From Linnemannia hyalina (lineage: Eukaryota > Mortierellomycota > Mortierellomycetes > Mortierellales > Mortierellaceae), in assembly GCA_019671135.1 (NCBI GenBank), contig JAHRHY010000002.1, positions 682,001 to 746,000 on the forward strand: a DNA stretch of 64,000 nucleotides. Direction: 5' to 3'. Below are positions 31,466 through 57,900 of this stretch, in pieces (position 1 is the stretch's first letter; the number at the start of each line of letters is the position of its first letter). The notes beneath the pieces are model-generated. The model was not told the DNA's origin. It was given only the letters and a program-made list of their open reading frames with translations, and searched no databases. The translations under genes and the position numbers were made by a program.

Positions 31466-34255
31466 ATGGAGCGAAGCAACCAACAAACAACCGACAACCC
31501 CTCTTCAACCCGCGCAACCGCCATGCGCGCAGGCGTCCAGAACCCCTCCGGCTTCAACTACCAAGTCGCCGGCCCCACCGTCGGAGGAACCGCAACCCCC
31601 TACAACCCCGACAACATCGAGGTCGCCAAGGAGCATCTGGCCGATTCCCTTGGCAGGGCTTCTCTCGACGATAACACTACCACCACCACTACCACTACTA
31701 CTGGTACTACTACCACTTATGGCACGGACTCGACGTTGAAGGATCAGGTTATCTCGGGTGCCTCGATTGCTGCCCATACTGCTGCGGATGTTACCATGAC
31801 TGTGGCCGCGGGTGCTGCTGCTGCTGGTGCTGCCACTGTCTCCGCGGTCAAGCACCTCTTTGCGGGTGACAAGACTGCTGTCGACCACAGCAACCCTGCA
31901 TCTACTACGGCTCACACCGGGATGGGTGCTACCAACAAGTCCCAGCCCATTGCTGACTTCCCCAACGTAAGTTTGCATATTCAAGAAAAAACTTTGCAAG
32001 AACGCGTTTAGGTACTAAGAAATGTTTCAAGCTAACAATTGTTTCGTTTGTTGTATTGACGATCCTTGTAGACCCAGGTGCACAACATGCATGATGACTC
32101 GACCCCCGAAACACCAACCCGCATCCACACCCACGCCGCCACAGGTCCCATCCACTCTGTCCCCGTCGACTTTGAGCCCATCCACTCCACCGGCTTGGAC
32201 AGCACCGCCTCCATGGCAGACTACCGTGCCAAAAAGGACGATCTCCACGCCACCCCTGGCGTTCGTGATTCCAAGGTCGATGTCCACCCTACCACCGAAT
32301 CGAACCAGGGTTATAACACCCACCACTCTACTACTGCTATCGACGCGCGTCCTAGTGCCAGTGCTATTGATGCCCGTCCTACGACTGCTTCCACTACCAC
32401 TACAGACTCGCGTCCTTTGACGGAAAAGGTCACGGCCCCCATCGTCGGTGCTGCCGCGGCTATGGGCACCGCTGCTGCCGGCACTGCTGCCTACCTTGGC
32501 AACAAGGCTTCCGAGGCCAAAGAATCAGTCAAGGGGACTGCCAACAACTTGACAACTCCTTCTGCCTCCTCTGCTACTCCATCGTCTGAATCTTCGCATG
32601 CGACTATGGACTCGTCTAAGGGATATTACAACCCTTCCGTCCCGAGCTCGACTTCTGCTTCTGCCACTACTCCTATTCAGCCCCAATCGGCCCGCTCTAC
32701 CGCTCCCATCCAGACTCAGTCCCCCTACTATAACACTACCACTTCTTCCGACTCGCGTCCTTTGACGGAAAAGGTCACGGCTCCCATTGTCGGTGCTGCT
32801 GCGGCTATGGGCACCGCTGCTGCCGGCACTGCTGCCTACCTTGGCAACAAGGCTTCCGAGGCCAAAGAATCAGTCAAGGGGACTGCCAACAACTTGACAA
32901 CTCCTTCTGCCTCCTCTGCTACTCCGTCGTCTGAATCTTCGCATGCGACTATGGACTCGTCTAAGGGATATTACAACCCTTCCGTCTCGAGCTCAACTTC
33001 TTACACCTCTCCTGCTTCTGCCACTACTCCTATTCAGCCCCAATCGGCTCACCCTACCGCTCCCATCCAGTCTCAGTCCCCCTACTATAACACTACCACT
33101 TCTACTGACTCCCGTCCTTTGACGGAGAAAGTCAAAGCCCCCGTCGTCGGTGCCGCCGCGGCTATGGGTGCCACTGCAGCCGGTACTGGAGCTTATCACG
33201 GAAGCAAGGCCTCTGAGGCAAAGGAATCCGTCAAAGGGACCTCTAATAACAACAACACTTACTCCACCCCGACCCCTATGAACACCTCCACGGCCAAGAC
33301 CCCAGCCTACACGACCGCCAGCGACTCTACTCCCGCCGCCGCCTTTGCCGACCCCATGATCCAGACTAGAACCTCTGCCACCAACCCCGTCACCAAGGCT
33401 GAGGAGATCAAGGCTTCCCCCGTCACCCCTGTCACCGAACCCGCCATCACCCGTTCCCCAACCTTGGGCCCTTACCAGACCAAGGCCACTACCACCAACC
33501 CTTCCTCTTCCCTCGACTCTCCCAACGTCACCACCTCGTCGTCGCGTCCAATGACCGAGAAGATCTCCGCCCCTGTCCTTGGAGCCGCCCTTCTAGGCAC
33601 GGCTGCACACCTCGGCAATAAGGCCACGGCCACAAATGCCAATAACTCTACTAAGATGTCCACCCCCTCGGCTAACAACTCCCGCACCACCGCTTCCTAC
33701 AACCCTACAAACACTTCGTCCTACAACACTCCCAACACCGCCCCTACTTCTTATTCAACCTCCTCCAACACCGCCCCTACTTCTTACACAACCCCCTCCA
33801 ACACCGCTCCTACTTCTTACACAACCTCCTCCAACACCACCATCCCCGCTTACGAAAAGTCGGCCACCGCAGCCGCCCCCATCATGGCCGCGGCCTCTGT
33901 CCCCTATATGTCCAATACTAGCGGCAACACAACCGCCCCCTACTCATCCGCAACACCCAACGAACGCAAATCCGCTGACACAACCGCAGCTGCAATCCCC
34001 GCATCCTACCACGGTTCCATCCCCCAAGCCGGCCCCGGCGAAGAAGTTGTCTGGGTCAAGACCGTCACCACCACCGACTACTACGACGATGGCACACCCA
34101 AAGGACGCGCTGATGTGGTGGATCGCCATCAGGAGGCAATTGATCCTCGCGCCTATGCAACAGTCAAGGACGGAGAGAAGGTTTATGACAACAATGACCA
34201 GCATATGCACCAGCAGGAGCACAAGGACCAAGATGGTGCTGGTCGTCATTTGTAA
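31466..34255 (+). CDS. unrecognised Ser/Thr/Ala-rich protein with long internal tandem repeats (894 aa)
   Basis: Two exons, 31466..31966 and 32072..34255, joined in phase across a GTAAGT...GTAG intron. I do not recognise the family. Visible structure: an N-terminal region with Ala/Val-rich stretches (TMTVAAGAAAAGAATVSAVK), then three to four copies of a unit containing DSRPLTEKVTAPIVGAAAAM, GTAAYLGNKASEAKESVKGT and a Ser/Thr/Tyr-rich spacer with KGYYNPS and QSPYYNTTTS. A fourth, diverged core (SRPMTEKISAPVLGAALLG) lies near 33540. A short TAPTSY-TT-SNTAP array follows, and the C-terminus has a compact motif EEVVWVKTVTTTDYYDDG then charged residues. The Ala/Gly core followed by an amphipathic K-SEAKESVKG segment vaguely recalls LEA-type stress proteins or membrane-surface helices, but no function is assigned. 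The gene is clearly real: third-position bias, a clean intron, and conserved frame through repeats. Confidence 0.85.
32405..33250 (+). repeat. 345/357-bp coding tandem repeats
   Basis: Units begin with GACTC(G/C)CGTCCTTTGACGG at 32405, 32750 and 33107. Units 1 and 2 are nearly identical at the DNA level, including synonymous sites over most of their length; unit 2 is 12 bp longer from a 4-residue insertion; unit 3 is more diverged and incomplete. Confidence 0.92.
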
Positions 34256-34823
34256 ATAGTTCTATTCGAGTATAAAACAAAAAAACCCCACACAGTAGGT
34301 TTGTATAGGAACACCAAGAAGAATATTAATTATCATGACTACATTAAAAACAAAACATACGAACACGCGTGCACTTGCATATCAACCATGCACATATTTT
34401 GGCCAGAATAGTTTGTTCTCTTTTTCCATATTTTTTTGGATTTTAATATATTACAACAATTGTTTTTTTTGTGAGGGTTCCATTATGGAGTGTGGGGGAG
34501 GTTCAAAAGGTCGCTCTCCGAGCCGGGTCGCCCGTGTTGCTCCTGCTTCCCTGCCCCACAATGGTTGGTTTTTCTAAAGAGTGCCTACAAACAGACCTCT
34601 CCTCCTGGTCTCCTTCAATCGATGCAAATGCAAAAAGATGCAAGAGAAACGTTAATGATGTCCTTGAGTCGAGTAGTGCTGTGTGTTGGGAGTTACGGCA
34701 GAGGTGGTGGTGGTTGTTTTTTTGTGTATGTTATGTCGATATTGATTGTATGTCTGTTGTTGTTATTGAATGTTCGCAACTCCACATCTGCGTCCGCTCT
34801 GGAACTGTCAACAGCTATTGCCA
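34256..34823. other. convergent 3' region; left end of the giant inverted repeat
   Basis: 3' UTRs of the repeat protein gene (+) and of RPB1 copy 1 (-). The inverted-repeat arm starts at 34471, immediately after a T8 run. No gene. Confidence 0.6.
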
Positions 34824-37800
34824 TTACTCCTCATCGTCCGAGTACGTTGGGCTGGTCGACTTGCCCTGTCCGGCAGGAGGTCGGGATGGGCTGGCCGCAC
34901 CATTGCCGGCGGGACTATACATGGGTCGTCCAGGAGTCGCTGCTCCGCCGCTCGACGGTCCTCCACCTGTGCCATAGCCCATGGGTGAGAACGACGTCGT
35001 CGGTGCCGAGTAGCTAGGAGAGTAGCTAGGGCTTGCTGGGGAGTAGCTTGGGCTCGTAGGAGAGTAGCTGGGACTCGTGGGGCTGTACGACGGCGACGTG
35101 GGCGAATAGCTAGGGCTCGTGGGCGAGTACGACGGCGATGTCGGCGAGTAGCTAGGCGACGTGGGACTGTACGAGGGCGACGTAGGCGAATAGCTCGGGC
35201 TCGTAGGAGAGTAGCTTGGCGACGTAGGCGAGTAGCTTGGCGACGTGGGGCTGTAGCTGGGGCTCGTAGGCGAGTATGATGGGGACGTGGGCGAGTACGA
35301 CGGCGACGTAGGTGAGTACGCCGGCGAGGTCGCACCGTACCCATGGTTCGTAGGAGAATAGCTTGGGCTTGTAGGCGAGTACGACGGCGACGTCGGGCTG
35401 TAGCTTGGGGACGTGGGGCTATAGCTTGGGCTCGTAGGCGAATACGAGGGCGACGTAGGAGAATACGAAGGCGACGTAGGCGAGTACGAGGGTGACGTGG
35501 GCGAATAGTTGGGAGATGTAGGGCTGTAGCTCGGCGACGTAGGGCTGTAGCTGGGAGACGTAGGACTGTAACCAGGGCTGGTCGCGTACATGGGCGAGCT
35601 GGGCGAGTAGCCCGGAGATGCTGGGGAGTATCCAGGACTGGTAGCTCCATAGGGACTGGCTGCATCCCATGATCCAGGGCCCATAGGTGAGCTGGCTCCA
35701 GAGTTGCCCATGGGCGAGAACACTGCATCCATGGGCGAGCTGGGGTGTGAAAAGTCCACATACTGAGGCGAGCGGCCGTCGTACGGCGTCATCGCAGACC
35801 CCATGCTGTCGTGGCCCATACCCATACCCATTCCCATACCCATTCCGCCGGCCATGCCAGGACGGGGTCCCTCAACGACCGTGCTCAACATCTTCTCATC
35901 CAACATCAGGTCAAATTCGCCGGTTCCCAATGGCGCCAGCTGTCCCAACATAATGTTCTCAGCCACTCCGCGGCAGTCATCCAACTCACCAACAGCGGCG
36001 GCCTCCATCAAAATCTCGACAGTCTCCTCGAACGAACAACGCATCAGTGCTCCAGTCTCGGCGCGGTTGATACCGTGGCGGGTAATAGCCATCAAGTGTC
36101 CGCGGTGAGTCATCACATCACACAGCAACGACAAGTGACGGTAGTTGACATAGGAACCATCAAACTCAATGACTCCACGCAACTCCTTCAAAAGCGCCTG
36201 ACGAGCTGCCTCAATACCAAGGACCGACATGACTTCACCGCAGTTGTTCGAGTAGGTCCTGCTAGCGTCGACATCCTCCTCGCACATGACGGCCTTCAAG
36301 TTCGAACCACTGGTCTCCAAGTGCCACTCCATATGAGAGCCAAAAGTGCCGCTCTCCGTGATGGTGATCTTCTTCTTCTCCACCATGTACACACGGATGA
36401 TGTTCTTGATACCACGCAGGCCGATCGAGCTCAACAAACTACTCTCAATCTTCTTCAAGAAAACATCCTCCTCCTCCTGAACATCCGCCTGCTTGTCCGC
36501 CTGCTCCTCGCTAATGATGCGGCACCGGATAATCAGCTTCTCGGCGTTGTCGTCGGAGCAAATGCACATCAGGTCGCGCTGGAAGTCCTCCGAGATCTTG
36601 TTGGACACATCCGCCATCGTTAGCTTCTTGTCAAGCATCATCTTGCGGTCCAACTCGATACGCAGCAACCAGGGCGACGTGCGTGAGGGGTTCAGGTCAT
36701 CATCGGGCATGGCATAGTAGGCCGAAACAAAGTCCTGATCCTCTTCGATGTTGGTGTTCTCTGGGTCGGGGTCGTAGTGAATCTCGGTCGACGAGGTTAC
36801 CTTGCGCAAGTTGGTGTACTCAAGCGCCACCTGGACCTGCTTGGCTCGCTCCATGTTACGCGCACAGTCGTCGGTCAGGTAAACGTTCAGCGAAGGCGTC
36901 TTGATGTTGGTCGCAACGTTGATAATCTCCTTAAGACGAGGCACTCCCAGGGTGACATTCTTGGACGACACTCCGGCGTAATGGAAGGTGTTGAGCGTCA
37001 TCTGTGTGGCGGGCTCTCCGATCGACTGGGCAGCGACCGTACCGACCATCTCTCCGGGATTGACCATCGCGTGGGCGAAGCGGGATCCAATCTCGCCGAC
37101 AACCCAATCAAAAGCCTCGCGTGTCAGGTGGTACTCCTCAATCACCCTGCGGACTGCAAGCGTCGAACGAATCAACATGCGGAACAGCAAAGTGGCATTG
37201 TCCTGAGCCTCCACACTGATGCGATCCGTGCCGCGAACGACAACCAGTTGCTTCTCCAGGTTCTTGATGCTCTCCAAGATGTGGCGAGGATCAAGGTCGC
37301 TGGGTCGCTTGTGGTCGACGTGGAACATCTGCTTGGAGTTCCAGATGTAACGTCTGATGTTGGTAGGCATAGGCCATTGGTCGTCACCTTCCGTGAAGAT
37401 GTAGTTGCGGAGCAAGTGGCGGTCATCTTCCAACTGCTTGAACTCGGCATCCAGCAACGACTGGACGGGGCCGACATTGGACCTCGACCCGCTGGACCTG
37501 GCAGCATCGGCCTCCTCCAACGACTTGAGCACAGAGTAGTCAAGGGTACCTGACTTGAAACCCTTGGATTTGTCCGCCAACTCAATCTTGAACTTTCGCT
37601 CAAACTGAGCATTGGACATCTTGACCGTATCCAAGCGTTGCTTCTCGACGTGACAAGCATCCATGCCATCCTCACCGTAACAGAACTGGATCACATGGCC
37701 GAGGGAGTTTCGGACGGTACCGTCGTACTTGACCATCACATCCTCCAGCGCCTTGACCAGACGACGCTGAATGTAACCGGTCTCGGCAGTCTTGACAGCG

Positions 37801-40800
37801 GTATCAATCAGACCTAATGAGTACGTGGGAAATGAGTGGAAGGCGAAGAAAAGAGGTGAGTAAATGGTAATCGAGAGCATAATAATAAACAAATACATAA
37901 TAAACCTTTCATGTTCGCATGCTTTACCTTCACGTCCTCCCATGGCGTGGAAGAAGAACTCTTGAGGGGTCAAACCACGAAGGTACGAGTTCTCGACGAA
38001 ACCACGACTCTCGGGCGAATGGTCGTCCTTGGTAAAGTGGGGGAGGGTTCGGTACTTGAATCCAAAAGGAATACGTTTACCCTCGACGTTCTGCTGACCC
38101 ACACAAGCTGTCATCTGCGAGACGTTAATGAAGGATCCCTTGGATCCAGAGATAACCATTTGCTTGACGTTGTTGTCCTCGCGCAAACTCTGCTGGGCCA
38201 TCTTTCCTGCATCATCACGAGCCGTGTTTAGCGCCCTGTTCACGTTCGACTCGAATGTCTCGCGCAGGGTCATACCGGGCTTGCACTCGAGTTTGTCCTG
38301 CTGCGCCTGGATAATGAGGTCGTTGACGTTGCTGGTCGCGTTGTTGATAATCGTGGAAATGCCCAAGACAGTGTTACGATCCGCAACTGTGTCTCCAATA
38401 CCAATACTGAATCCGTGCTGCAACAGCCAGTAGTTGACGACCGTCTGACATCCGTTGAAGAACGTCTTGGCCACCTCAGGTCCGTACTGGTTCATTATTA
38501 CGTGGATCCATCCGCCTCCTGATGTACCGACAGTCTTCTTGCAGACAATACCGCAAATCAATTCGCCGTTCTCGACAATGACCTTGGTGTCTCCAGGGGA
38601 AATGTCGCTCTCTTCGTTATCAGGGTGAGTCGAGTGGAAGGTGATACAGTTGATACCCTTGGGGATAATCATACTGACCATCTGCTTTCCGGTCCATAGA
38701 GGCTTGGGCTTGAGGATTGCAGGGGTTGGCAGGAATCCCTCCCAACCGGGCACCCACATCACCAAGTTCATCACCATCTCCTTGGTCAGGAAGCAGTCAC
38801 GCTTGGTAAACTTGCGCACACCGCACAGCGTATCCTGCACAATACCCATGACGGGCTTGTTCGACTGGGGGGAAACGATCTGGCGAGGAACCATGCAGAT
38901 CTCTGTAATCTCGGCACGCGTCTCAACCGACTGGGGAACGTGCAAGTTCATCTCGTCTCCGTCGAAATCGGCGTTGTAGGGCGATGTGACAGAGAGGTTG
39001 AGACGGAACGTCGAGTAAGGCATCACGCGAATCTTGTGACCCATCATCGACATTTTGTGCAGAGAAGGCTGACGGTTAAAGATAACAACGTCGCCGTCGT
39101 TAATGTGACGCTCAACCTTCCATCCGAGCTGCAAAGGGACTTCTCGCTTGTTCCACCGCAAGTCGATACGCTGGCCATCATCACGGATGACATACACAGC
39201 TCCGGGATGCTCTGTGGGTCCGTTCCTGACCAGCTCCTGCAATTTGTCAATGTTGTAGGGTGTGACCAATTCTGGGTAGGTAAGGGTCCTGGCGATACTG
39301 CGGGGCACTCCGACCTCGTCAATCGACAAGTTGGGGTCTCCTGTAATAACTGTACGCGCCGAGAAATCCACACGCTTTCCCATCAAGTTTCCACGAAGAC
39401 GACCCTCCTTTCCCTTCAGACGAGCACGAATCGACTTGAGCTGCATGGCGAGAAAACAATTAAACAGAGTTGGCAATAAGTACCGTGTCAAGGAGCTCAA
39501 AACAACTAGCTCGGCAAAGTCACGTATACGACATGTTCAAAACAAACAATATGTCCACTTACAGGTCGTCCGTTCTTGTGAGCTGCTGGGGGCTGTCCAG
39601 CAATGTCGTTATCCATGTATGTGGCGACATGGTACTGGAGCAGCTGCTCGTGCTGCTGGATCAAATGTGCTGGGGTTCCGTCCTGTGCACACCGGTAGAC
39701 ATCAGCATTGGTCTTGATGATGGCAAACAACTTGTGAGTCAAATCATCCTCTCCTGTGCTCGATCCATCCATTTGAATACTGGGGCGGACAGCCAGAGGA
39801 GGGATAGGAAGCACTGTCATGATCATCCACTCGGGGCGAGCAAACTCTGCAGACAGACCCATGGCCTGGATATCTTCGTCCGAAATACGCTTCAAGATGT
39901 GGTACGCATCACTGGGCGTCAATGTGCGCTTGCCCTCGGGTTGAGAATCCTATGTTCAACATAAGGCGAATGGTGAACGAGGATTAGTATTGTTGTTACG
40001 GGCCATTTAACAAAATTGACCAACGGTCAGGCATAGCAATCACTGCAAGGATAAAAGAAGCCATAATACTTACGTCGTTGGCGTTGGCTTTGAAGTTGAC
40101 GCTCAGGCCGAGACCTTCCTTGCGGAAGATGGGCTGGCGGTGTCCACATCCACCGTGCGACTTTTTCTTGGGCTGTGGAATACCTTGCTCATCCACCTCC
40201 ATCTCTTCGCCCATCTCGCCGTCAATATCATCGCCACCCTCGCAGACCATCTTGGTCTTGGCGAGCTCCCAAACAGCCTTCAGACGGACCTTGGGGTCTC
40301 TGATGCGTCGAGCTCTGACAAACTTGCTGTTGTTCTGATACCACAAACATATCAGAACAGAGAGAAATGATCGGAAAGAATAACGACCGAATTAGCTATG
40401 CTTTGCCACCAACAGCGCCACCGGCCGATATTATTTTTCGTTATCCACTCTGACGAAGCTGGAAAATGGCCAAAAAAAAAAAAAAAAAAAAAAAAGGAGG
40501 GCAACAAACTTACATCGTCCACCTTGAGCTTGGAGCAAGAGTAGCACACACACTCAAGAATCTTCTTGACCTTGGTCAGAAAACCTATTAGGCAGTTGCG
40601 GTTCAATGCTCAGATTAGTCGTTCATATATCCCTACACGATTCTTGCCTCAGAAAAGGACTCAAAAATGCGCGTTTGAATAAATAACGACTAAATAAACC
40701 ATGGGACATGTCAGTCGGACATACCGTTCAGATAAACAGGCTTGGCCAACTCGATATGACCGAAATGTCCGGGGCACTCAGCCATGCCCTCCGAGCACGT

Positions 40801-41229
40801 CTGGCACTTGAAGTTGCGGTTGATGGTACCCATACGGGGATCGTGCAGACCGCCGATCTTGGGCCGCTTGGTACCCTCGTCAATCAGCTCTGCGTGCTCG
40901 ATCTTGGCCACAGACATGTTTTTCTATATACATTTTTTTTTTTGGTGTTTTGTTATTTGTGTACATACACAGATCAGGAATACATGTTTATTAGTTTTAC
41001 GCTGCCTCTCATTTCTCATACGCAACAAGAACAAAACACAATACGGTGTTCGTTCTTTGTCCACTGTACAGGACACATATACACACACTCATAACCACAC
41101 GCGCAAACATAAACAACAAAAGCATCAAAAATGCAAACGTACAATTTCTTCTGGCGAGAGGATACCAAACTGCACACAGTCCACGCGCCGCAGCGGTGCT
41201 GACGAGTAGGTGAATCTGTTGCCGCTCAT
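34824..41229 (-). CDS. RPB1: RNA polymerase II largest subunit RPB1, copy 1 (1835 aa, 7 exons)
   Basis: Catalytic subunit of RNA polymerase II; with Rpb2 it forms the active centre that makes mRNA in the nucleus. Exons: 41143..41229, 40725..40923, 40514..40584, 40074..40334, 39563..39949, 37928..39440, 34824..37813. Phases close. Visible: N-terminal clamp zinc motif ([19 protein letters not shown]), second zinc pair in CVCYSCSK, catalytic [10 protein letters not shown] near residue 491-500 with three Mg-binding Asp, bridge and trigger regions (FHAMGGREG then [13 protein letters not shown] across an intron), and a C-terminal domain of roughly 25 YSPTSPS heptads interrupted once by [15 protein letters not shown] Gly-Met run ([13 protein letters not shown]) links the body to the CTD. 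The last intron (37814..37927, 114 nt) is a multiple of three without stops, so its retention would insert 38 residues; conservation of [11 protein letters not shown] argues it is spliced. Nothing suggests inactivation. Second copy at 42086..48509. Confidence 0.97.
35010..35600 (-). repeat. 21-bp CTD heptad repeats, RPB1 copy 1
   Basis: Coding array of 21-bp units for YSPTSPS. Codons vary between units (AGC/TCG/TCT for Ser, ACG/ACA for Thr), so the array is old and not freshly expanded. The codon pattern is shared with copy 2. Confidence 0.95.
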
Positions 41230-41239
41230 TGTCGTGTCG

Positions 41240-42075
41240 GCGGATAGTGCACGGCAGTAGGCGTTATCTGCTGCGGGGTTTTTCTGCTGCGGAGTGAAGG
41301 TTAAAGGGAAGGCTCCCGCGGAGACAAGTCCGGTGTATCAAGAGAAGTGGTTTGTGTAAAGACCAGTTGGTGAAGGCTGTTGAGTTTTGGTGGAGACGAG
41401 AGTGTGTGGTTACAGGGCGGTGCGGGAGTGTGGAAGGGGGTCTTGATGACTCCTGGGTTACTAATGTGTGGCCGAGTGAGTGTGTTGGGTTGATTACAAA
41501 CTGTTGATGAGAGAGAGTGAATAGTCCTATTGCTGTCGGCTGTGTTGTTTTTTTGGTCCTTTCTTTTCAGGGTCCAATGGTGGTACCGAGACGAGGTTAG
41601 ATGTCGATGGCAACCTTTCGTCAGGCAGAGGAAGTGAAAGAGAAACAGATGGAAAAGACAAAAGCGCAAGAAAAAAAGGTGCAAAAGATCTTTATTTATA
41701 CGTTGGATTAATAAACCATGCGATATCGCAATTATCAGTGACGTAACATTTATTGGGGTCCTGAGGGCTCCAAGATCCGCACTCTCCCAACTTACTTAAA
41801 CTTCACTCTCCTCGCCATCAAGATGTCCACCTTGTTCTTTCATCCACGCTTTACAGTCTTGTCATTGTCAAGCAACAGCACCGCAGGATCCTGTTGCGCC
41901 TCACCCATAACACCTACCACCGCTTCCTATCTACCTCTCCACATCCTTACTTCCTTCTAATTAGCTACATCCTAACTACCCACGAGCAGAGCGATAGTCA
42001 GGGTAGAAGATCGACCCAGAAACCCATTCACTGGCAGGAACAAACCAACGAGGCATATCGCACATAAGGACACCG
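41240..42075. promoter_or_regulatory. unique 836-bp spacer: divergent promoter region of the two RPB1 copies
   Basis: This single-copy sequence separates two start codons pointing away from each other, so it must hold both promoters. The left half is GA/GT-rich and the right half CT/CA-rich on the plus strand, so each gene sees a pyrimidine-rich strand upstream, like other genes here. Near the middle lie a 12-bp perfect palindrome (TGCGATATCGCA, 41719..41730), an ATF/CREB-like TGACGTAA (41739..41746) and an A/T-rich TTTATTTATA at about 41691. The two 5' flanks share only the last 10 bp (CGACACGACA) before each ATG. No convincing ORF. Confidence 0.7.
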
Positions 42076-42085
42076 CGACACGACA

Positions 42086-45000
42086 ATGAGCGGCAACAGA
42101 TTCACCTACTCGTCAGCACCGCTGCGGCGCGTGGACTGTGTGCAGTTTGGTATCCTCTCGCCAGAAGAAATTGTACGTTTGCATTTTTGATGCTTTTGTT
42201 GTTTATGTTTGCGCGTGTGGTTATGAGTGTGTGTATATGTGTCCTGTACAGTGGACAAAGAACGAACACCGTATTGTGTTTTGTTCTTGTTGCGTATGAG
42301 AAATGAGAGGCAGCGTAAAACTAATAAACATGTATTCCTGATCTGTGTATGTACACAAATAACAAAACACCAAAAAAAAAAATGTATATAGAAAAACATG
42401 TCTGTGGCCAAGATCGAGCACGCAGAGCTGATTGACGAGGGTACCAAGCGGCCCAAGATCGGCGGTCTGCACGATCCCCGTATGGGTACCATCAACCGCA
42501 ACTTCAAGTGCCAGACGTGCTCGGAGGGCATGGCTGAGTGCCCCGGACATTTCGGTCATATCGAGTTGGCCAAGCCTGTTTATCTGAACGGTATGTCCGA
42601 CTGACATGTCCCATGGTTTATTTAGTCGTTATTTATTCAAACGCGCATTTTTGAGTCCTTTTCTGAGGCAAGAATCGTGTAGGGATATATGAACGACTAA
42701 TCTGAGCATTGAACCGCAACTGCCTAATAGGTTTTCTGACCAAGGTCAAGAAGATTCTTGAGTGTGTGTGCTACTCTTGCTCCAAGCTCAAGGTGGACGA
42801 TGTAAGTTTGTTGCCCTCCTTTTTTTTTTTTTTTTTTTTTTTTGGCCATTTTCCAGCTTCGTCAGAGTGGATAACGAAAAATAATATCGGCCGGTGGCGC
42901 TGTTGGTGGCAAAGCATAGCTAATTCGGTCGTTATTCTTTCCGATCATTTCTCTCTGTTCTGATATGTTTGTGGTATCAGAACAACAGCAAGTTTGTCAG
43001 AGCTCGACGCATCAGAGACCCCAAGGTCCGTCTGAAGGCTGTTTGGGAGCTCGCCAAGACCAAGATGGTCTGCGAGGGTGGCGATGATATTGACGGCGAG
43101 ATGGGCGAAGAGATGGAGGTGGATGAGCAAGGTATTCCACAGCCCAAGAAAAAGTCGCACGGTGGATGTGGACACCGCCAGCCCATCTTCCGCAAGGAAG
43201 GTCTCGGCCTGAGCGTCAACTTCAAAGCCAACGCCAACGACGTAAGTATTATGGCTTCTTTTATCCTTGCAGTGATTGCTATGCCTGACCGTTGGTCAAT
43301 TTTGTTAAATGGCCCGTAACAACAATACTAATCCTCGTTCACCATTCGCCTTATGTTGAACATAGGATTCTCAACCCGAGGGCAAGCGCACATTGACGCC
43401 CAGTGATGCGTACCACATCTTGAAGCGTATTTCGGACGAAGATATCCAGGCCATGGGTCTGTCTGCAGAGTTTGCTCGCCCCGAGTGGATGATCATGACA
43501 GTGCTTCCTATCCCTCCTCTGGCTGTCCGCCCCAGTATTCAAATGGATGGATCGAGCACAGGAGAGGATGATTTGACTCACAAGTTGTTTGCCATCATCA
43601 AGACCAATGCTGATGTCTACCGGTGTGCACAGGACGGAACCCCAGCACATTTGATCCAGCAGCACGAGCAGCTGCTCCAGTACCATGTCGCCACATACAT
43701 GGATAACGACATTGCTGGACAGCCCCCAGCAGCTCACAAGAACGGACGACCTGTAAGTGGACATATTGTTTGTTTTGAACATGTCGTATACGTGACTTTG
43801 CCGAGCTAGTTGTTTTGAGCTCCTTGACACGGTACTTATTGCCAACTCTGTTTAATTGTTTTCTCGCCATGCAGCTCAAGTCGATTCGTGCTCGTCTGAA
43901 GGGAAAGGAGGGTCGTCTTCGTGGAAACTTGATGGGAAAGCGTGTGGATTTCTCGGCGCGTACAGTTATTACAGGAGACCCCAACTTGTCGATTGACGAG
44001 GTCGGAGTGCCCCGCAGTATCGCCAGGACCCTTACCTACCCAGAATTGGTCACACCCTACAACATTGACAAATTGCAGGAGCTGGTCAGGAACGGACCCA
44101 CAGAGCATCCCGGAGCTGTGTATGTCATCCGTGATGATGGCCAGCGTATCGACTTGCGGTGGAACAAGCGAGAAGTCCCTTTGCAGCTCGGATGGAAGGT
44201 TGAGCGTCACATTAACGACGGCGACGTTGTTATCTTTAACCGTCAGCCTTCTCTGCACAAAATGTCGATGATGGGTCACAAGATTCGCGTGATGCCTTAC
44301 TCGACGTTCCGTCTCAACCTCTCTGTCACATCGCCCTACAACGCCGATTTCGACGGAGACGAGATGAACTTGCACGTTCCCCAGTCGGTTGAGACGCGTG
44401 CCGAGATTACAGAGATCTGCATGGTTCCTCGCCAGATCGTTTCCCCCCAGTCGAACAAGCCCGTCATGGGTATTGTGCAGGATACGCTGTGCGGTGTGCG
44501 CAAGTTTACCAAGCGTGACTGCTTCCTGACCAAGGAGATGGTGATGAACTTGGTGATGTGGGTGCCCGGTTGGGAGGGATTCCTGCCAACCCCTGCAATC
44601 CTCAAGCCCAAGCCTCTATGGACCGGAAAGCAGATGGTCAGTATGATTATCCCCAAGGGTATCAACTGTATCACCTTCCACTCGACTCACCCTGATAACG
44701 AAGAGAGCGACATTTCCCCTGGAGACACCAAGGTCATTGTCGAGAACGGCGAATTGATTTGCGGTATTGTCTGCAAGAAGACTGTCGGTACATCAGGAGG
44801 CGGATGGATCCACGTAATAATGAACCAGTACGGACCTGAGGTGGCCAAGACGTTCTTCAACGGATGTCAGACGGTCGTCAACTACTGGCTGTTGCAGCAC
44901 GGATTCAGTATTGGTATTGGAGACACAGTTGCGGATCGTAACACTGTCTTGGGCATTTCCACGATTATCAACAACGCGACCAGCAACGTCAACGACCTCA

Positions 45001-48000
45001 TTATCCAGGCGCAGCAGGACAAACTCGAGTGCAAGCCCGGTATGACCCTGCGCGAGACATTCGAGTCGAACGTGAACAGGGCGCTAAACACGGCTCGTGA
45101 TGATGCAGGAAAGATGGCCCAGCAGAGTTTGCGCGAGGACAACAACGTCAAGCAAATGGTTATCTCTGGATCCAAGGGATCCTTCATTAACGTCTCGCAG
45201 ATGACAGCTTGTGTGGGTCAGCAGAACGTCGAGGGTAAACGTATTCCTTTTGGATTCAAGTACCGAACCCTCCCCCACTTTACCAAGGACGACCATTCGC
45301 CCGAGAGTCGTGGTTTCGTCGAGAACTCGTACCTTCGTGGTTTGACCCCTCAAGAGTTCTTCTTCCACGCCATGGGAGGACGTGAAGGTAAAGCATGCGA
45401 ACATGAAAGGTTTATTATGTATTTGTTTATTATTATGCTCTCGATTACCATTTACTCACCTCTTTTCTTCGCCTTCCACTCATTTCCCACGTACTCATTA
45501 GGTCTGATTGATACCGCTGTCAAGACTGCCGAGACCGGTTACATTCAGCGTCGTCTGGTCAAGGCGCTGGAGGATGTGATGGTCAAGTACGACGGTACCG
45601 TCCGAAACTCCCTCGGCCATGTGATCCAGTTCTGTTACGGTGAGGATGGCATGGATGCTTGTCACGTCGAGAAGCAACGCTTGGATACGGTCAAGATGTC
45701 CAATGCTCAGTTTGAGCGAAAGTTCAAGATTGAGTTGGCGGACAAATCCAAGGGTTTCAAGTCAGGTACCCTTGACTACTCTGTGCTCAAGTCGTTGGAG
45801 GAGGCCGATGCTGCCAGGTCCAGCGGGTCGAGGTCCAATGTCGGCCCCGTCCAGTCGTTGCTGGATGCCGAGTTCAAGCAGTTGGAAGATGACCGCCACT
45901 TGCTCCGCAACTACATCTTCACGGAAGGTGACGACCAATGGCCTATGCCTACCAACATCAGACGTTACATCTGGAACTCCAAGCAGATGTTCCACGTCGA
46001 CCACAAGCGACCCAGCGACCTTGATCCTCGCCACATCTTGGAGAGCATCAAGAACCTGGAGAAGCAACTGGTTGTCGTTCGCGGCACGGATCGCATCAGT
46101 GTGGAGGCTCAGGACAATGCCACTTTGCTGTTCCGCATGTTGATTCGTTCGACGCTTGCAGTCCGCAGGGTGATTGAGGAGTACCACCTGACACGCGAGG
46201 CTTTTGATTGGGTTGTCGGCGAGATTGGATCCCGCTTCGCCCACGCGATGGTCAATCCCGGAGAGATGGTCGGTACGGTCGCTGCCCAGTCGATCGGAGA
46301 GCCCGCCACACAGATGACGCTCAACACCTTCCATTACGCCGGAGTGTCGTCCAAGAATGTCACCCTGGGAGTGCCTCGTCTTAAGGAGATTATCAACGTT
46401 GCGACCAACATCAAGACGCCTTCGCTGAACGTTTACCTGACCGACGACTGTGCGCGTAACATGGAGCGAGCCAAGCAGGTCCAGGTGGCGCTTGAGTACA
46501 CCAACTTGCGCAAGGTAACCTCGTCGACCGAGATTCACTACGACCCCGACCCAGAGAACACCAACATCGAAGAGGATCAGGACTTTGTTTCGGCCTACTA
46601 TGCCATGCCCGATGATGACCTGAACCCCTCACGCACGTCGCCCTGGTTGCTGCGTATCGAGTTGGACCGCAAGATGATGCTTGACAAGAAGCTAACGATG
46701 GCGGATGTGTCCAACAAGATCTCGGAGGACTTCCAGCGCGACCTGATGTGCATTTGCTCCGACGACAACGCCGAGAAGCTGATTATCCGGTGCCGCATCA
46801 TTAGCGAGGAGCAGGCGGACAAGCAGGCGGATGTTCAGGAGGAGGAGGATGTTTTCTTGAAGAAGATTGAGAGTAGTTTGTTGAGCTCGATCGGCCTGCG
46901 TGGTATCAAGAACATCATCCGTGTGTACATGGTGGAGAAGAAGAAGATCACCATCACGGAGAGCGGCACTTTTGGCTCTCATATGGAGTGGCACTTGGAG
47001 ACCAGTGGTTCGAACTTGAAGGCCGTCATGTGCGAGGAGGATGTCGACGCTAGCAGGACCTACTCGAACAACTGCGGTGAAGTCATGTCGGTCCTTGGTA
47101 TTGAGGCAGCTCGTCAGGCGCTTTTGAAGGAGTTGCGTGGAGTCATTGAGTTTGATGGTTCCTATGTCAACTACCGTCACTTGTCGTTGCTGTGTGATGT
47201 GATGACTCACCGCGGACACTTGATGGCTATTACCCGCCACGGTATCAACCGCGCCGAGACTGGAGCACTGATGCGTTGTTCGTTCGAGGAGACTGTCGAG
47301 ATTTTGATGGAGGCCGCCGCTGTTGGTGAGTTGGATGACTGCCGCGGAGTGGCTGAGAACATTATGTTGGGACAGCTGGCGCCATTGGGAACCGGCGAAT
47401 TTGACCTGATGTTGGATGAGAAGATGTTGAGCACGGTCGTTGAGGGACCCCGTCCTGGCATGGCCGGCGGAATGGGTATGGGAATGGGTATGGGTATGGG
47501 AATGGGTATGGGTATGGGCCACGACAGCATGGGGTCTGCGATGACGCCGTACGACGGCCGCTCGCCTCAGTATGTGGACTTTTCACACCCCAGCTCGCCC
47601 ATGGATGCAGTGTTCTCGCCCATGGGCAACTCTGGAGCCAGCTCACCTATGGGCCCTGGATCATGGGATGCAGCCAGTCCCTATGGAGCTACCAGTCCTG
47701 GATACTCCCCAGCATCTCCGGGCTACTCGCCCAGCTCGCCCATGTACGCGACCAGCCCTGGTTACAGTCCTACGTCTCCCAGCTACAGCCCTACGTCGCC
47801 GAGCTACAGCCCTACATCTCCCAACTATTCGCCCACGTCACCCTCGTACTCGCCTACGTCGCCTTCGTATTCTCCTACGTCGCCCTCGTATTCGCCTACG
47901 AGCCCAAGCTATAGCCCCACGTCCCCAAGCTACAGCCCGACGTCGCCGTCGTACTCGCCTACAAGCCCAAGCTATTCTCCTACGAACCATGGGTACGGTG

Positions 48001-48509
48001 CGACCTCGCCGGCGTACTCACCTACGTCGCCGTCGTACTCGCCCACGTCCCCATCATACTCGCCTACGAGCCCCAGCTACAGCCCCACGTCGCCAAGCTA
48101 CTCGCCTACGTCGCCAAGCTACTCTCCTACGAGCCCGAGCTATTCGCCTACGTCGCCCTCGTACAGTCCCACGTCGCCTAGCTACTCGCCGACATCGCCG
48201 TCGTACTCGCCCACGAGCCCTAGCTATTCGCCCACGTCGCCGTCGTACAGCCCCACGAGTCCCAGCTACTCTCCTACGAGCCCAAGCTACTCCCCAGCAA
48301 GCCCTAGCTACTCTCCTAGCTACTCGGCACCGACGACGTCGTTCTCACCCATGGGCTATGGCACAGGTGGAGGACCGTCGAGCGGCGGAGCAGCGACTCC
48401 TGGACGACCCATGTATAGTCCCGCCGGCAATGGTGCGGCCAGCCCATCCCGACCTCCTGCCGGACAGGGCAAGTCGACCAGCCCAACGTACTCGGACGAT
48501 GAGGAGTAA
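42086..48509 (+). CDS. RPB1: RNA polymerase II largest subunit RPB1, copy 2 (1841 aa, 7 exons)
   Basis: Full, apparently intact second copy. Exons: 42086..42172, 42392..42590, 42731..42801, 42981..43241, 43366..43752, 43875..45387, 45502..48509; GT-AG junctions and phases as in copy 1. All catalytic and structural motifs are present: zinc-binding clamp, [19 protein letters not shown], and the roughly 25-heptad CTD ending in PTYSDDEE. The protein differs from copy 1 only by six extra residues (Gly-Met-Gly-Met-Gly-Met) in the linker before the CTD. Because introns are present, this is not a retrocopy. Its promoter is different from that of copy 1. RPB1 is single-copy in nearly all fungi, so two intact adjacent copies are unusual; either a real recent duplication or an assembly effect must explain it. 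Confidence 0.97.
47740..48330 (+). repeat. 21-bp CTD heptad repeats, RPB1 copy 2
   Basis: Same array as in copy 1, unit for unit in translation, including the mid-array [14 protein letters not shown] interruption. Confidence 0.95.
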
Positions 48510-48993
48510 TGGCAATAGCTGTTGACAGTTCCAGAGCGGACGCAGATGTGGAGTTGCGAACATTCAATAACAACAACAGACATACAATCAATATCGACAT
48601 AACATACACAAAAAAACAACCACCACCACCTCTGCCGTAACTCCCAACACACAGCACTACTCGACTCAAGGACATCATTAACGTTTCTCTTGCATCTTTT
48701 TGCATTTGCATCGATTGAAGGAGACCAGGAGGAGAGGTCTGTTTGTAGGCACTCTTTAGAAAAACCAACCATTGTGGGGCAGGGAAGCAGGAGCAACACG
48801 GGCGACCCGGCTCGGAGAGCGACCTTTTGAACCTCCCCCACACTCCATAATGGAACCCTCACTTCCTACAAAAAAAACTAGCTGCCATCTTTTCCTTTGT
48901 AAAATAATTAAAACGAGAGATTGTAATCTCTAAGAAACATCTGTGAACACTGTTGACTTGTGGGAGAATGCTTTCGTTTATTATTGATACCCT
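48510..48993. other. convergent 3' region between RPB1 copy 2 and SF3A1; right end of the inverted repeat
   Basis: 353 bp belong to the arm (RPB1 3' flank) and about 130 bp are unique, holding the SF3A1 3' UTR. An A8 run at about 48870 adjoins the arm end. Confidence 0.6.
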
Positions 48994-54991: not shown

Positions 54992-57900
54992 TTAGTTGGA
55001 AAGAGTCCATGCGACAATCTCCTTGAGCAATGAGAGTCCATAGAACTCAGCAATGTTCTCAAAGACCCTCATCTTGCGCAGATAATCGTTCCTCCCAAGC
55101 ACTGTCACAAACCGACCCGAGCACTCACACCACTCGCCCAGATGATCCGCCTTGACTCGTCGACACTTGACACACTTCAGATCCTGCATCTGGTACTGGT
55201 CCACCATCCGCTCAACAATCGACACCATTGACTCCTCAATCGCCTCACGATCGTACTCCTCCTTGCACTCCTGACACCTCCAAGCTCCCAGCACAACCTC
55301 ACCTGTGTCCTTCTTGATCTTGGGCAGCAGATGTGGGTCGCGGCAGAAATCCAGGTCCTGGCAGTAATTGCAGTACGAGCAGATAACGCCTCGAAGCACA
55401 AAGCTCTCGCATGGATTCGTGAAGAGCGACTCGGGCGAGAACTCGCGAATCTCGATCAGATCCAACAAATTCTTGCGCATCACCCGGACCTCTCGTTCGA
55501 CAGTCGGGTCAATACTAAAGACCGCCGCAAGAGACTTGATTAGCTCCAGCGCTGGGTTCGACAGCTGCAAATGAGATCCTGGTTGGCGTGGGAAGGCATA
55601 CAACAACGCCAATTGAGGATCCTTGAGCGAGTCGCGTCTCTTGGCCATGATCTCGGGAAAGACCTTAAGCAGCCGTCTGGAAATCTGCTGTGAAATCAGC
55701 TTCTTCTTGAACGACACTGCTTCGACACTCTTCTTGTCTGCCTTGCTGGCTCCCGCGCTTGCGCCTGCACCGTTCTCTTCCTGGCCGTTCGTCTCGCCAT
55801 TCTGAGAACTGCTGCTGACCTTGGCCAGACGCTTCTGGTGAGTGAACTTGTAGACCTGGTCAATAAACTCCGCAATTGTCTTCCCGAACTCGTCCTGGAG
55901 TGCCATCGGCAGATACTGCTGAATGTTCCAGGCCAGCGTGATAGGTCGGTCGACCTGGGTCAGGAGAGTGGGCTGGTCCTGTTCTTGAACCTCGTGCGGG
56001 TTGGGGCAGATGATACCACCATAGTTGGCAGAGTCCATCCATAGCAGTTGCTCCCAGTAGTGGACGGGCATCAGGTCGATATGCATGAACAATGGCTTGG
56101 CCTGGATATGTCGAATGACCCAGCTGCAGTAGGCGTAGGCGTTTCCGACTGAGGGCTTAGACGTTGCAACTGTCAGCTTGTTGAAGTTGCCATAGGTGAC
56201 ACGGGATCCCAGGCGCTTGAACTCGGCCACGAGCTGCAAAAAGACCTTCTTCATCAGACCGTGGATAAGCGCATACATGGAGGGGTCGTACAGCTTTGAG
56301 TTGGGACTGGTCAGCCACCGGTGAAAGTGGGCAGTCAAACTCTGGGCAAAGAATCCCTGCGTCTCGGCCACCTCAATCGCCCATCCTCGCACCATCGCCT
56401 TGATCATCGCAAACGCCTGCACGGAAGCCATTCCTGTCCCAAACGAGATCACACTTGAGACCTTTCCAGAGTTGTAGTCGTCCAAAGTGTGGGATGCGTC
56501 GAGAGTTGCTTCGCCACCGCCCTCCAACTCGTTGATCTGACTCGACTGCAGCAATGTGTTGACGGCCAGGCCAAGCATATCCATCTCCAGACAAACAGTC
56601 TCATAGTGACCAGGGGTGCTGATGATGGGATCTGACAGCTCCTCCGATCCTGATAGGTTCTCGTCTTCCTCACGACCGCCCAAGTCCGGCTTGCTCGATG
56701 GAGACCACCAGAGCAACATGTCATGGCGCTGAAGGCGACGAGCCAACATAACATCTGTAACAAAGATGGGCGAGTCCTGTTCGATATTGCAGAGAGGAAC
56801 ATCCGCGTATCTTGCCATAGCAATTTGTTCCGTGATCCATCCTCCGACAGTCAGGAACTGGGCCAACATTCGCTTGGTCGCGTTTGTTTGCCAGGCTAAA
56901 GCCTGGAACGGCTTGATGTTCTTGGAGCAGGGCATTGAGATGAGTGGGAAATCAGAGAGGATACTCATGCTCTCCAACATCTTTTGGCGACTCCATGGGG
57001 AATGCAAGATCACAGCCGTGGCTCCGCGACGCTCGTCCTGATGCTTGCTAAGACACTTGATCAGACCCTTGATTGCGGTCTTATCGTTGTTGACATACTC
57101 GACCTCGAACTGGAGCTGACTAAAGTAGTCAAAAGCCTTGTTGGGTCGTCGGGTCGTGTCCGGCATCCGGTCGATCTCGGCCTTGACCGCTTCGTACGTT
57201 CGGCTCATGTTAGGCATCTGGCCCTTCTGTCCAGGTGCATCCACCACAAACACAAAGACTCGATTGTGGACCGAGGAGAAGAGGGCAAACAAGTGTCGAG
57301 TGTCTGTCGTGGCGTGGTACAAATACAGATAGTTGAGTGCCCGGTCGTCCTGCATGTACGGCATCTTGTCCATGCTCACTGGTTTGAGATCGGCAAGCTC
57401 GAAGCCCTCATCTAGGCCGCGCTTAGCTCGGTTGGTGACAGAACACACGCAGCTCAGGTTGATGATTGCCCTGTAGAACAACGGCAACTGGGTCTCGTAC
57501 ACACCTTCTACGTCTGGATGACTGAAGAAGCTGGACAGGTTCTTGGACTCCTTCTGGTACAAACTCTCGGGCATTGTGAATTGGTACAGATGAAGGCAGG
57601 GATGGGCGCGGGGCAGGGTCCTGACCAACTTTTGCTTGGGAAAGAGTCGAGTTTCGTGGCTAGCATCCTCGACTCGGCTGTTGACGTAGAAGATGCGTGG
57701 TACTGACAAACGGACCGAATGAAGAGCCTTGTCGATGAGGATCCAAAGCCTGAATTCGCCAGGGATCTCCGACTCGACAATTTGAACAATCTGCCACACG
57801 TTGGTCAAGATGCTGGTCGACTGTTGCTGAATAAAGCCCGATAGGGAACCGACGGGGCCCTTGGCGCGAGACTGACCCAGGGCCTTCCGTTGGGCTCGCT

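What the first reader, a model, noticed from the sequence alone, without database searches (positions are those of the whole stretch)
34471..48862. Head-to-head inverted duplication of a complete RPB1 gene
Two full intron-containing genes for the largest RNA polymerase II subunit form the arms (6,769 and 6,787 bp) of one inverted repeat around an 836-bp unique spacer. RPB1 is normally single-copy. Exons, introns, 3' flank and even the 24-nt intron homopolymer match; translations of overlapping frames on both strands also agree. Such identity means a very recent event, ongoing gene conversion between arms (as in palindromic chromosome regions), or an assembly effect. Unique spacer and unique flanks argue against a simple missed-hairpin read artefact, in which spacer and flanks would be mirrored too.
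Basis: partly seen in the sequence, partly recalled or inferred. Interest (0 to 1): 0.9.

Follow-up and report, generated by a model that had tools for sequence, protein, structure and literature searches.

The report
Mirror-image doubled polymerase gene in fungus
In the published genome of the soil fungus Linnemannia hyalina, the gene for the core of RNA polymerase II, which fungi usually carry once, appears as two practically identical, intact copies facing away from each other across a short unique stretch that would have to serve as promoter for both; it is probably a young real duplication, but the raw long reads must still rule out an assembly error.

Summary
Two arms (34471-41243, RPB1 on the minus strand; 42073-48862, RPB1 on the plus strand) flank an 829-bp unique spacer (836 bp ungapped). 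They show no substitution, one 18-bp in-frame gap in a hexamer repeat and one 1-bp gap at the inner end. Both genes are intact (7 exons; 1,835 and 1,841 aa).

The window matches Linnemannia hyalina: the left neighbour equals KI688_005663, on a contig of the same length as the window's. The published SCG-10 genome is PacBio-only (HGAP4). RPB2, RPA2 and RPC2 were each found once, and the spacer and tested right flank are unique, so the doubling is local.

New here: homology starts only 13-14 bp before the start codon, so the copies share no promoter. Each has an ATG-poor leader of its own. The left copy keeps the repeat length of its closest relative; the right has one extra 18-bp unit. Identity reaches the very edges, favouring recent duplication over long gene conversion.

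Assembly error is unlikely on topology but untested, since no reads are accessible here. Two RPB1 genes are known in Allomyces and trypanosomes. I judge it a new member of a known kind: striking, not a new system.

The parts
34471..41243 (-). Left arm of the inverted repeat: whole RPB1 coding gene plus 353 bp of 3' flank; probably extends to 34462 (A8C tract) beyond a 7-bp indel
   Evidence: extension: (11-mer ACA8C occurs twice in 308 kb of stranded sequence, at the two arm ends)
42073..48862 (+). Right arm of the inverted repeat: whole RPB1 coding gene plus 353 bp of 3' flank; probably extends to 48878
34824..41229 (-). Left RPB1 coding gene, 7 exons (41143-41229, 40725-40923, 40514-40584, 40074-40334, 39563-39949, 37928-39440, 34824-37813), 1,835 aa, CTD with 22 exact YSPTSPS heptads
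   Evidence: Pfam RPB1 domains
42086..48509 (+). Right RPB1 coding gene, 7 exons (42086-42172, 42392-42590, 42731-42801, 42981-43241, 43366-43752, 43875-45387, 45502-48509), 1,841 aa
   Evidence: best PDB sequence matches are Pol II RPB1
41244..42072 (.). 829-bp unique spacer, the only upstream region of both genes. No ATG starts in the 489 bp before the left start codon and none in the 262 bp before the right start codon
   Evidence: only itself found in the genome; 4 of 2000 and 28 of 2000 dinucleotide shuffles have as long an ATG-free run
47501..47518 (+). The 18-bp unit of the ATGGGN hexamer tract present only in the right copy (6 residues of a Met-Gly tract between core and CTD); placement within the repeat is arbitrary
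48863..48869 (+). 7 bp present only at the right outer end, followed by the A8C tract shared with the left outer end
32072..34255 (+). Left neighbour (open frame of 727 aa), tail-to-tail with the left RPB1; matches KI688_005663 (894 aa) of Linnemannia hyalina at 100% over all its length
   Evidence: contig length 3,814,424, as C12
48994..51398 (-). Right neighbour, SF3A1/PRP21-type splicing factor, tail-to-tail with the right RPB1 (gene limits read by eye)
   Evidence: PF12230 on 49635-50267
54992..59929 (-). DNA polymerase epsilon catalytic subunit (POL2), large open frame

Best explanation
A real, local and evolutionarily recent inverted duplication of RPB1 in Linnemannia hyalina. A segment reaching from 13-14 bp before the start codon to about 350 bp past the stop codon was copied in reverse orientation to the other end of the upstream intergenic region, most simply by replication template switching with end joining (inferred). 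Both copies are intact. Because no promoter was copied, the 829-bp spacer must act as a divergent promoter: its left part drives the left copy and its right part the right copy (inferred; no expression data). The left copy is probably the older one (about 60:40). Since then only one extra 18-bp repeat unit in the right copy and small indels at the arm ends have appeared. Shown: sequence, copy number in the assembly, intact frames, unique spacer. Inferred: that the assembly is right, the direction of copying, the mechanism and expression of both copies.
For: 0 substitutions over about 6,770 aligned bp, of which 1,264 bp of the right arm are non-coding; 95% upper bound on divergence 0.044% for the arm and 0.24% for the non-coding part. 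Identity runs to within 3 bp of the inner end and about 10 bp of the outer end, with no decayed similarity outside; long-term conversion alone would be expected to leave worn edges (inference). Unique spacer, unique right flank (2 kb tested), and in the left 10 kb only short, partial matches elsewhere. Only one RPB2, one RPC2 and one RPA2 found, so no doubled haplotype. The 18-bp difference sits in one arm only; the left copy's Met-Gly tract equals that of the closest relative, and in 9 of 9 relatives compared the tract is no longer than the left copy's. Both upstream sides are ATG-poor. The contig is 3.81 Mb and the locus lies about 0.72 Mb from its start.
Against: No read, depth or expression data could be examined. 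The published genome is PacBio CLR, HGAP4-assembled, with no short-read polishing mentioned (PMC8444964, whole text). Identical T24 tracts in both copies could mean that the two consensus sequences share reads. The ATG-free leader on both sides hints that the divergent arrangement is older than the sequence identity suggests. The pyrimidine bias of the upstream sides does not set them apart from other gene flanks (0.60 and 0.57 against a mean of 0.57 for 17 upstream and 0.54 for 18 downstream regions). Junction microhomology is not clear-cut. The genome search scores only its best candidates, so its copy counts are lower bounds.
Confidence: 0.6

Rival explanations
1. An older head-to-head RPB1 pair kept identical by gene conversion between the inverted arms, as in palindromic chromosome regions. 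The interior is homogenised; the promoters and outer flanks, outside the tracts, have diverged fully.
For: Inverted arms under 1 kb apart are good substrates for conversion (general knowledge). The only non-repeat differences, a 1-bp and a 7-bp indel, both lie within about 11 bp of an arm end; two random events would both do so about 1 time in 100,000 (a post hoc estimate). Each side of the spacer has a leader-like ATG-free run, as if both promoters had been under selection for some time.
Against: Identity holds to the very ends with no zone of substitutions and no residual similarity beyond the A8C tract. The end indels are equally expected as scars of the duplication itself. No relative's DNA was reachable to compare arm against orthologue.
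Confidence: 0.24
2. Assembly artefact: one RPB1 locus drawn twice by the long-read assembler.
For: CLR-only HGAP4 assembly (PMC8444964); more than one RPB1 was not seen in most fungi examined by PMC1599754 (passages); perfect identity including a T24 tract.
Against: A hairpin read would mirror spacer and flanks, and they are unrelated. Four different sequences abut the arm ends; for a single RPB1, even an inversion polymorphism does not join both spacer ends to the 5' end of RPB1, so at least two contexts must have been read or a chimeric join is needed (reasoning). The arms differ by exactly one 18-bp in-frame unit, which a single locus would not give in a haploid (haploidy recalled, not tested).
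Confidence: 0.13
3. Two alleles or nuclear types (heterokaryon or diploid) merged into one contig.
For: The strain's ploidy was not tested here; one 18-bp length difference could be allelic.
Against: RPB2, RPA2 and RPC2 were found once each; spacer and right flank are unique; no substitutions at all between the copies.
Confidence: 0.03

Closest known systems
Two RPB1 genes in the fungus Allomyces macrogynus (PMC1599754; passages seen)
   Same: Two RPB1 genes in one fungal species, with similar sequences
   Different: Found as slightly different sequenced PCR products; paralogues in that study differ by 2.2-9.8% in nucleotides; no arrangement described in the passages seen. Here there is no substitution and the copies are 829 bp apart
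RPB1 of Trypanosoma brucei (PMC2734056; passages seen, abstract opening)
   Same: Pol II largest subunit encoded by two similar loci whose mRNAs have identical 3'UTRs
   Different: On chromosomes 4 and 8, not adjacent or inverted; no canonical CTD
Gene-conversion palindromes, such as those of the Y chromosome (recalled; one genome paper with palindromes listed, not read)
   Same: Large inverted arms, near-perfect identity, short unique spacer, intact gene in each arm
   Different: Arms of one gene only; conversion, which defines that class, is not shown here
Recent inverted segmental duplications of single genes (recalled)
   Same: Local, inverted, near-identical, small indels at junctions
   Different: The duplicated gene is a core polymerase subunit, and the break lies 13-14 bp before the start codon, so the two copies share no promoter

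Membership tests
[quoted passage not shown]
   (left large open frame): PF00623, PF04983, PF05000, PF04998, PF04992, PF04990 over cut-off; PF04997 under its cut-off there because exons 1-5 lie outside that frame, but over cut-off in both arms exon by exon. (right large open frame; 60 of 139 matches shown): of the 20 best rows 15 are named Pol II largest subunit/RPB1 and 5 only 'DNA-directed RNA polymerase subunit'; RPC1 first appears in row 21 at 643 bits against 1,487 or more
[quoted passage not shown]
   22 exact YSPTSPS in each copy; PF05001
Inverted segmental duplication | Two near-identical inverted arms with unique flanks and spacer | tested here: met
   left flank without its self-match
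Inverted segmental duplication | Both copies present in single DNA molecules | not testable with these tools
   raw reads SRX11233978 (named in PMC8444964) are not held here
Gene-conversion palindrome | Arms more alike within a genome than to their orthologues, although the duplication predates the species split | not testable with these tools
   no DNA of relatives held; one genome contigs and one viral-contig scan found only distant polymerases
mRNA-derived retrocopy | Loss of introns in one copy | tested here: not met
   the same 6 introns in both copies
Missed-adapter hairpin read artefact | Spacer and outer flanks mirrored | tested here: not met
   upstream 415 bp score 21 against shuffle mean 20.7 (83 of 200 reach it), whole spacer 24 against 21.3 (26 of 200), downstream 1,000 bp 22 against 22.6 (126 of 200)
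Haplotype or whole-genome doubling in the assembly | Other single-copy polymerase genes doubled too | tested here: not met
   one RPB2 (C19), one RPC2 (C10), one RPA2 (C7) found; all 3 candidates of the first look were scored

The most novel reading that the evidence does not exclude
The 829-bp spacer is an invertible promoter cassette: recombination between the 6.8-kb inverted arms flips it, swapping which promoter drives which RPB1, so that nuclei of one mycelium hold both orientations and two RPB1 forms, differing in linker length before the CTD, are expressed from two different promoters.
Probability: 0.08. Interest if true: 0.65.

Novelty: new member of a known kind. Interest (0 to 1): 0.42.

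Why it matters
RPB1 is the catalytic core of Pol II, is dosage-sensitive by general knowledge, and is used as a marker gene in Mortierellaceae taxonomy (PMC12195542 and PMC12661329, listing and abstract openings only). A real head-to-head pair would test how a cell tolerates doubling one subunit without its partner RPB2, and how a copy without its promoter gains one. It is also a compact natural substrate for measuring conversion and flipping between inverted arms. If it proves an artefact, it is a warning about CLR-only assemblies, where identical inverted arms can go unnoticed.

Tried and rejected
Retrocopy: rejected, introns kept. Hairpin artefact: rejected as a simple cause, flanks and spacer unrelated; the genome paper says adapters were removed before assembly. 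Doubled haplotypes: rejected. Spacer copied from the left flank: the spacer scored 29 against the left 1,000 bp, reached by 2 of 200 mononucleotide shuffles (26 in the other orientation, 14 of 200); but 19 of 279 random pairs of stretches from this window score 29 or more, so I take it as chance. Genome-wide habit of inverted repeats: none in 11 stretches, 139 kb; that is 0.27% of the genome, so it only shows that such arms are not dense. RNA families or tRNAs in the window: none (ARAGORN with the bacterial code). Bacterial promoter scan of the spacer: nothing, and not suited to a fungus. Pyrimidine bias as a promoter test: not discriminating. Synteny by equal contig length: no length is shared among the 9 RPB1 rows of Mortierellaceae shown, the 16 POL2 rows of Mortierellaceae shown and the 34 left-neighbour rows, compared; the rows are cluster representatives and the first two lists are capped at 120, so the ancestral side stayed open. 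Literature: searches listed no report of this duplication (titles and abstract openings; one search shows 15 of 384, 15 of 16); the genome paper (whole text) does not mention RPB1. These searches cover open-licence PMC papers only. No structure was predicted, since the fold was not in doubt.
Full report
What was checked. The finding claims a head-to-head inverted duplication of a complete RPB1 gene at 34471-48862. Repeat search and BLAST of the window against itself confirm it. Ungapped, the arms are 34471-35846 plus 35815-41239 on the left and 42076-47500 plus 47487-48862 on the right, with 836 nt between. Allowing gaps they are 34471-41243 and 42073-48862, with 829 nt between. Over 6,791 alignment columns there is no mismatch. 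There are two gaps: 18 bp in a hexamer repeat, and 1 bp three bases from the inner end.

The genes. Splice sites read from the sequence give seven exons in each arm and intact proteins of 1,835 aa (left, minus strand) and 1,841 aa (right, plus strand). The proteins are identical apart from six residues of a Met-Gly tract. In the left large open frame Pfam finds six RPB1 core domains and the C-terminal repeat over cut-off; domain 1 lies in the earlier exons and is over cut-off in both arms in the exon-by-exon genome search. The right large open frame matches Pol II RPB1 chains of the PDB best. Each copy holds 22 exact YSPTSPS heptads. The T24 tract in intron 3 and an A11 tract are the same length in both copies.

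Where it comes from. The open frame at 32072-34255 is 100% identical over all 727 residues to KI688_005663 (894 aa) of Linnemannia hyalina, on a contig of 3,814,424 bp. The window's contig C12 has exactly that length, and the genome held is 51,506,068 bp in 50 contigs. The published strain is SCG-10: 51,558,230 bp in 52 contigs, PacBio Sequel reads only (13.7 Gb), HGAP4, no short-read polishing mentioned (PMC8444964, whole text). I infer that this is the window's assembly.

Copy number and background. A DNA search of the genome with the left arm finds the two arms and only short, 70-86% matches on C4 and C11, where the domain search places other polymerase largest-subunit genes (not assigned further). 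The second-largest subunit family gives one RPB2 (C19), one RPC2 (C10) and one RPA2 (C7), so neither the genome nor the Pol II pair RPB1-RPB2 is doubled as a whole. These searches score only the best candidates, so counts are lower bounds. The spacer was found once, and so was the 2 kb to the right. The 10 kb to the left have only short, partial matches elsewhere; the self-match is not listed, and one of nine candidates, presumably it, was not scored. In 11 other stretches of this genome, 139 kb in all, there is no inverted repeat of 60 nt or more.

What was duplicated. The shared sequence begins 13-14 bp before the start codon and ends 353 bp after the stop codon. At the outer end both arms are followed by A8C, directly on the left and after 7 further bases on the right. 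The 11-mer ACA8C occurs only twice in 308 kb of stranded sequence, at just these two places, so the homology probably extends to 34462 and 48878 with a 7-bp indel. Outside that, neither the upstream sides (415 bp: score 21, shuffle mean 20.7; whole spacer: 24 against 21.3, reached by 26 of 200) nor the downstream 1,000 bp (22 against 22.6) resemble each other; the nearest 200 bp downstream score 22 against a mean of 18, reached by 18 of 200 shuffles. The best local match there is the A8C tract. A score of 29 between spacer and left flank (2 of 200 shuffles) is reached by 19 of 279 random pairs from this window and is taken as chance. No promoter was duplicated, so the 829-bp spacer must serve both genes. 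It looks fit for that: no ATG starts in the 489 bp before the left start codon (as long a run in 4 of 2000 shuffles) and none in the 262 bp before the right one (28 of 2000). Base composition did not help: pyrimidine fractions of 0.60 and 0.57 are ordinary for this genome.

Which copy is older. In an alignment with nine relatives the left copy has the same Met-Gly tract length as the closest one, a protein whose label is cut to 'Linnema' in the output, and all nine have tracts no longer than the left copy's. The right copy has one extra 18-bp unit. Together with the left copy's longer ATG-free leader this favours the left copy as original, weakly. Equal contig lengths were used to look for the ancestral neighbour and gave no answer.

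How young. No substitution in about 6,770 bp puts divergence below 0.044% at 95% confidence, and below 0.24% for the 1,264 non-coding bases alone. The closest relative's protein is identical at 1,704 of 1,750 aligned residues, with many of the differences in stretches that look mis-predicted. Either the duplication is recent or conversion has recently levelled the arms. Edge-to-edge identity favours recency. The placing of both non-repeat indels within about 11 bp of the ends (about 1 in 100,000 for two random events, post hoc) fits conversion or junction scars equally. I put recent duplication at 0.60, older pair with conversion at 0.24, assembly error at 0.13 and merged alleles at 0.03.

Is the assembly right. 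A missed hairpin would mirror spacer and flanks; they are not mirrored. If RPB1 were single, no simple inversion polymorphism would join both spacer ends to its 5' end and two different flanks to its 3' end, so a chimeric join would be needed (reasoning). The 18-bp unit separates the arms. Against this, the published assembly rests on one read type, and identical long homopolymers may reflect shared reads in polishing. Only the reads can settle it.

What is known. More than one RPB1 was not seen in most fungi examined, but two RPB1 genes were found in Allomyces macrogynus (PMC1599754, passages), and T. brucei has RPB1 on two chromosomes (PMC2734056, passages). Spt6 binds the Rpb1 linker before the CTD in yeast (PMC5599234, abstract opening); the one protein difference between the copies lies between core and CTD, but it was not aligned to the yeast site and no effect is claimed. 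No report of this duplication appeared in the searches made. Verdict: observation confirmed; a probable young inverted duplication of a core gene with split promoters; new member of a known kind.

Noticed in passing
window 32400-33240: A 345-bp tandem repeat (2.4 copies; one 264-nt pair 96% alike) inside the left-neighbour gene KI688_005663; its 34 listed rows vary strongly in length and identity.
   Followed up: partly
window 34808-35788 and 47545-48525: 326-aa open frames on the same strand as RPB1 but in another frame over the CTD, with further long frames on the opposite strand; probably by-products of the repetitive coding sequence, not genes.
   Followed up: no
window 41823-41960: A 45-codon upstream open reading frame (ATG) starts 263 bp before the start codon of the right RPB1 copy; the left copy has no ATG within 489 bp.
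   Followed up: partly
window 41719-41730: A perfect 12-bp palindrome, TGCGATATCGCA, lies in the spacer.
   Followed up: no
G000 C4:1301156-1302754 and C11:154748-154951: Other polymerase largest-subunit genes match PF04997 here; not assigned to Pol I or Pol III.
   Followed up: no
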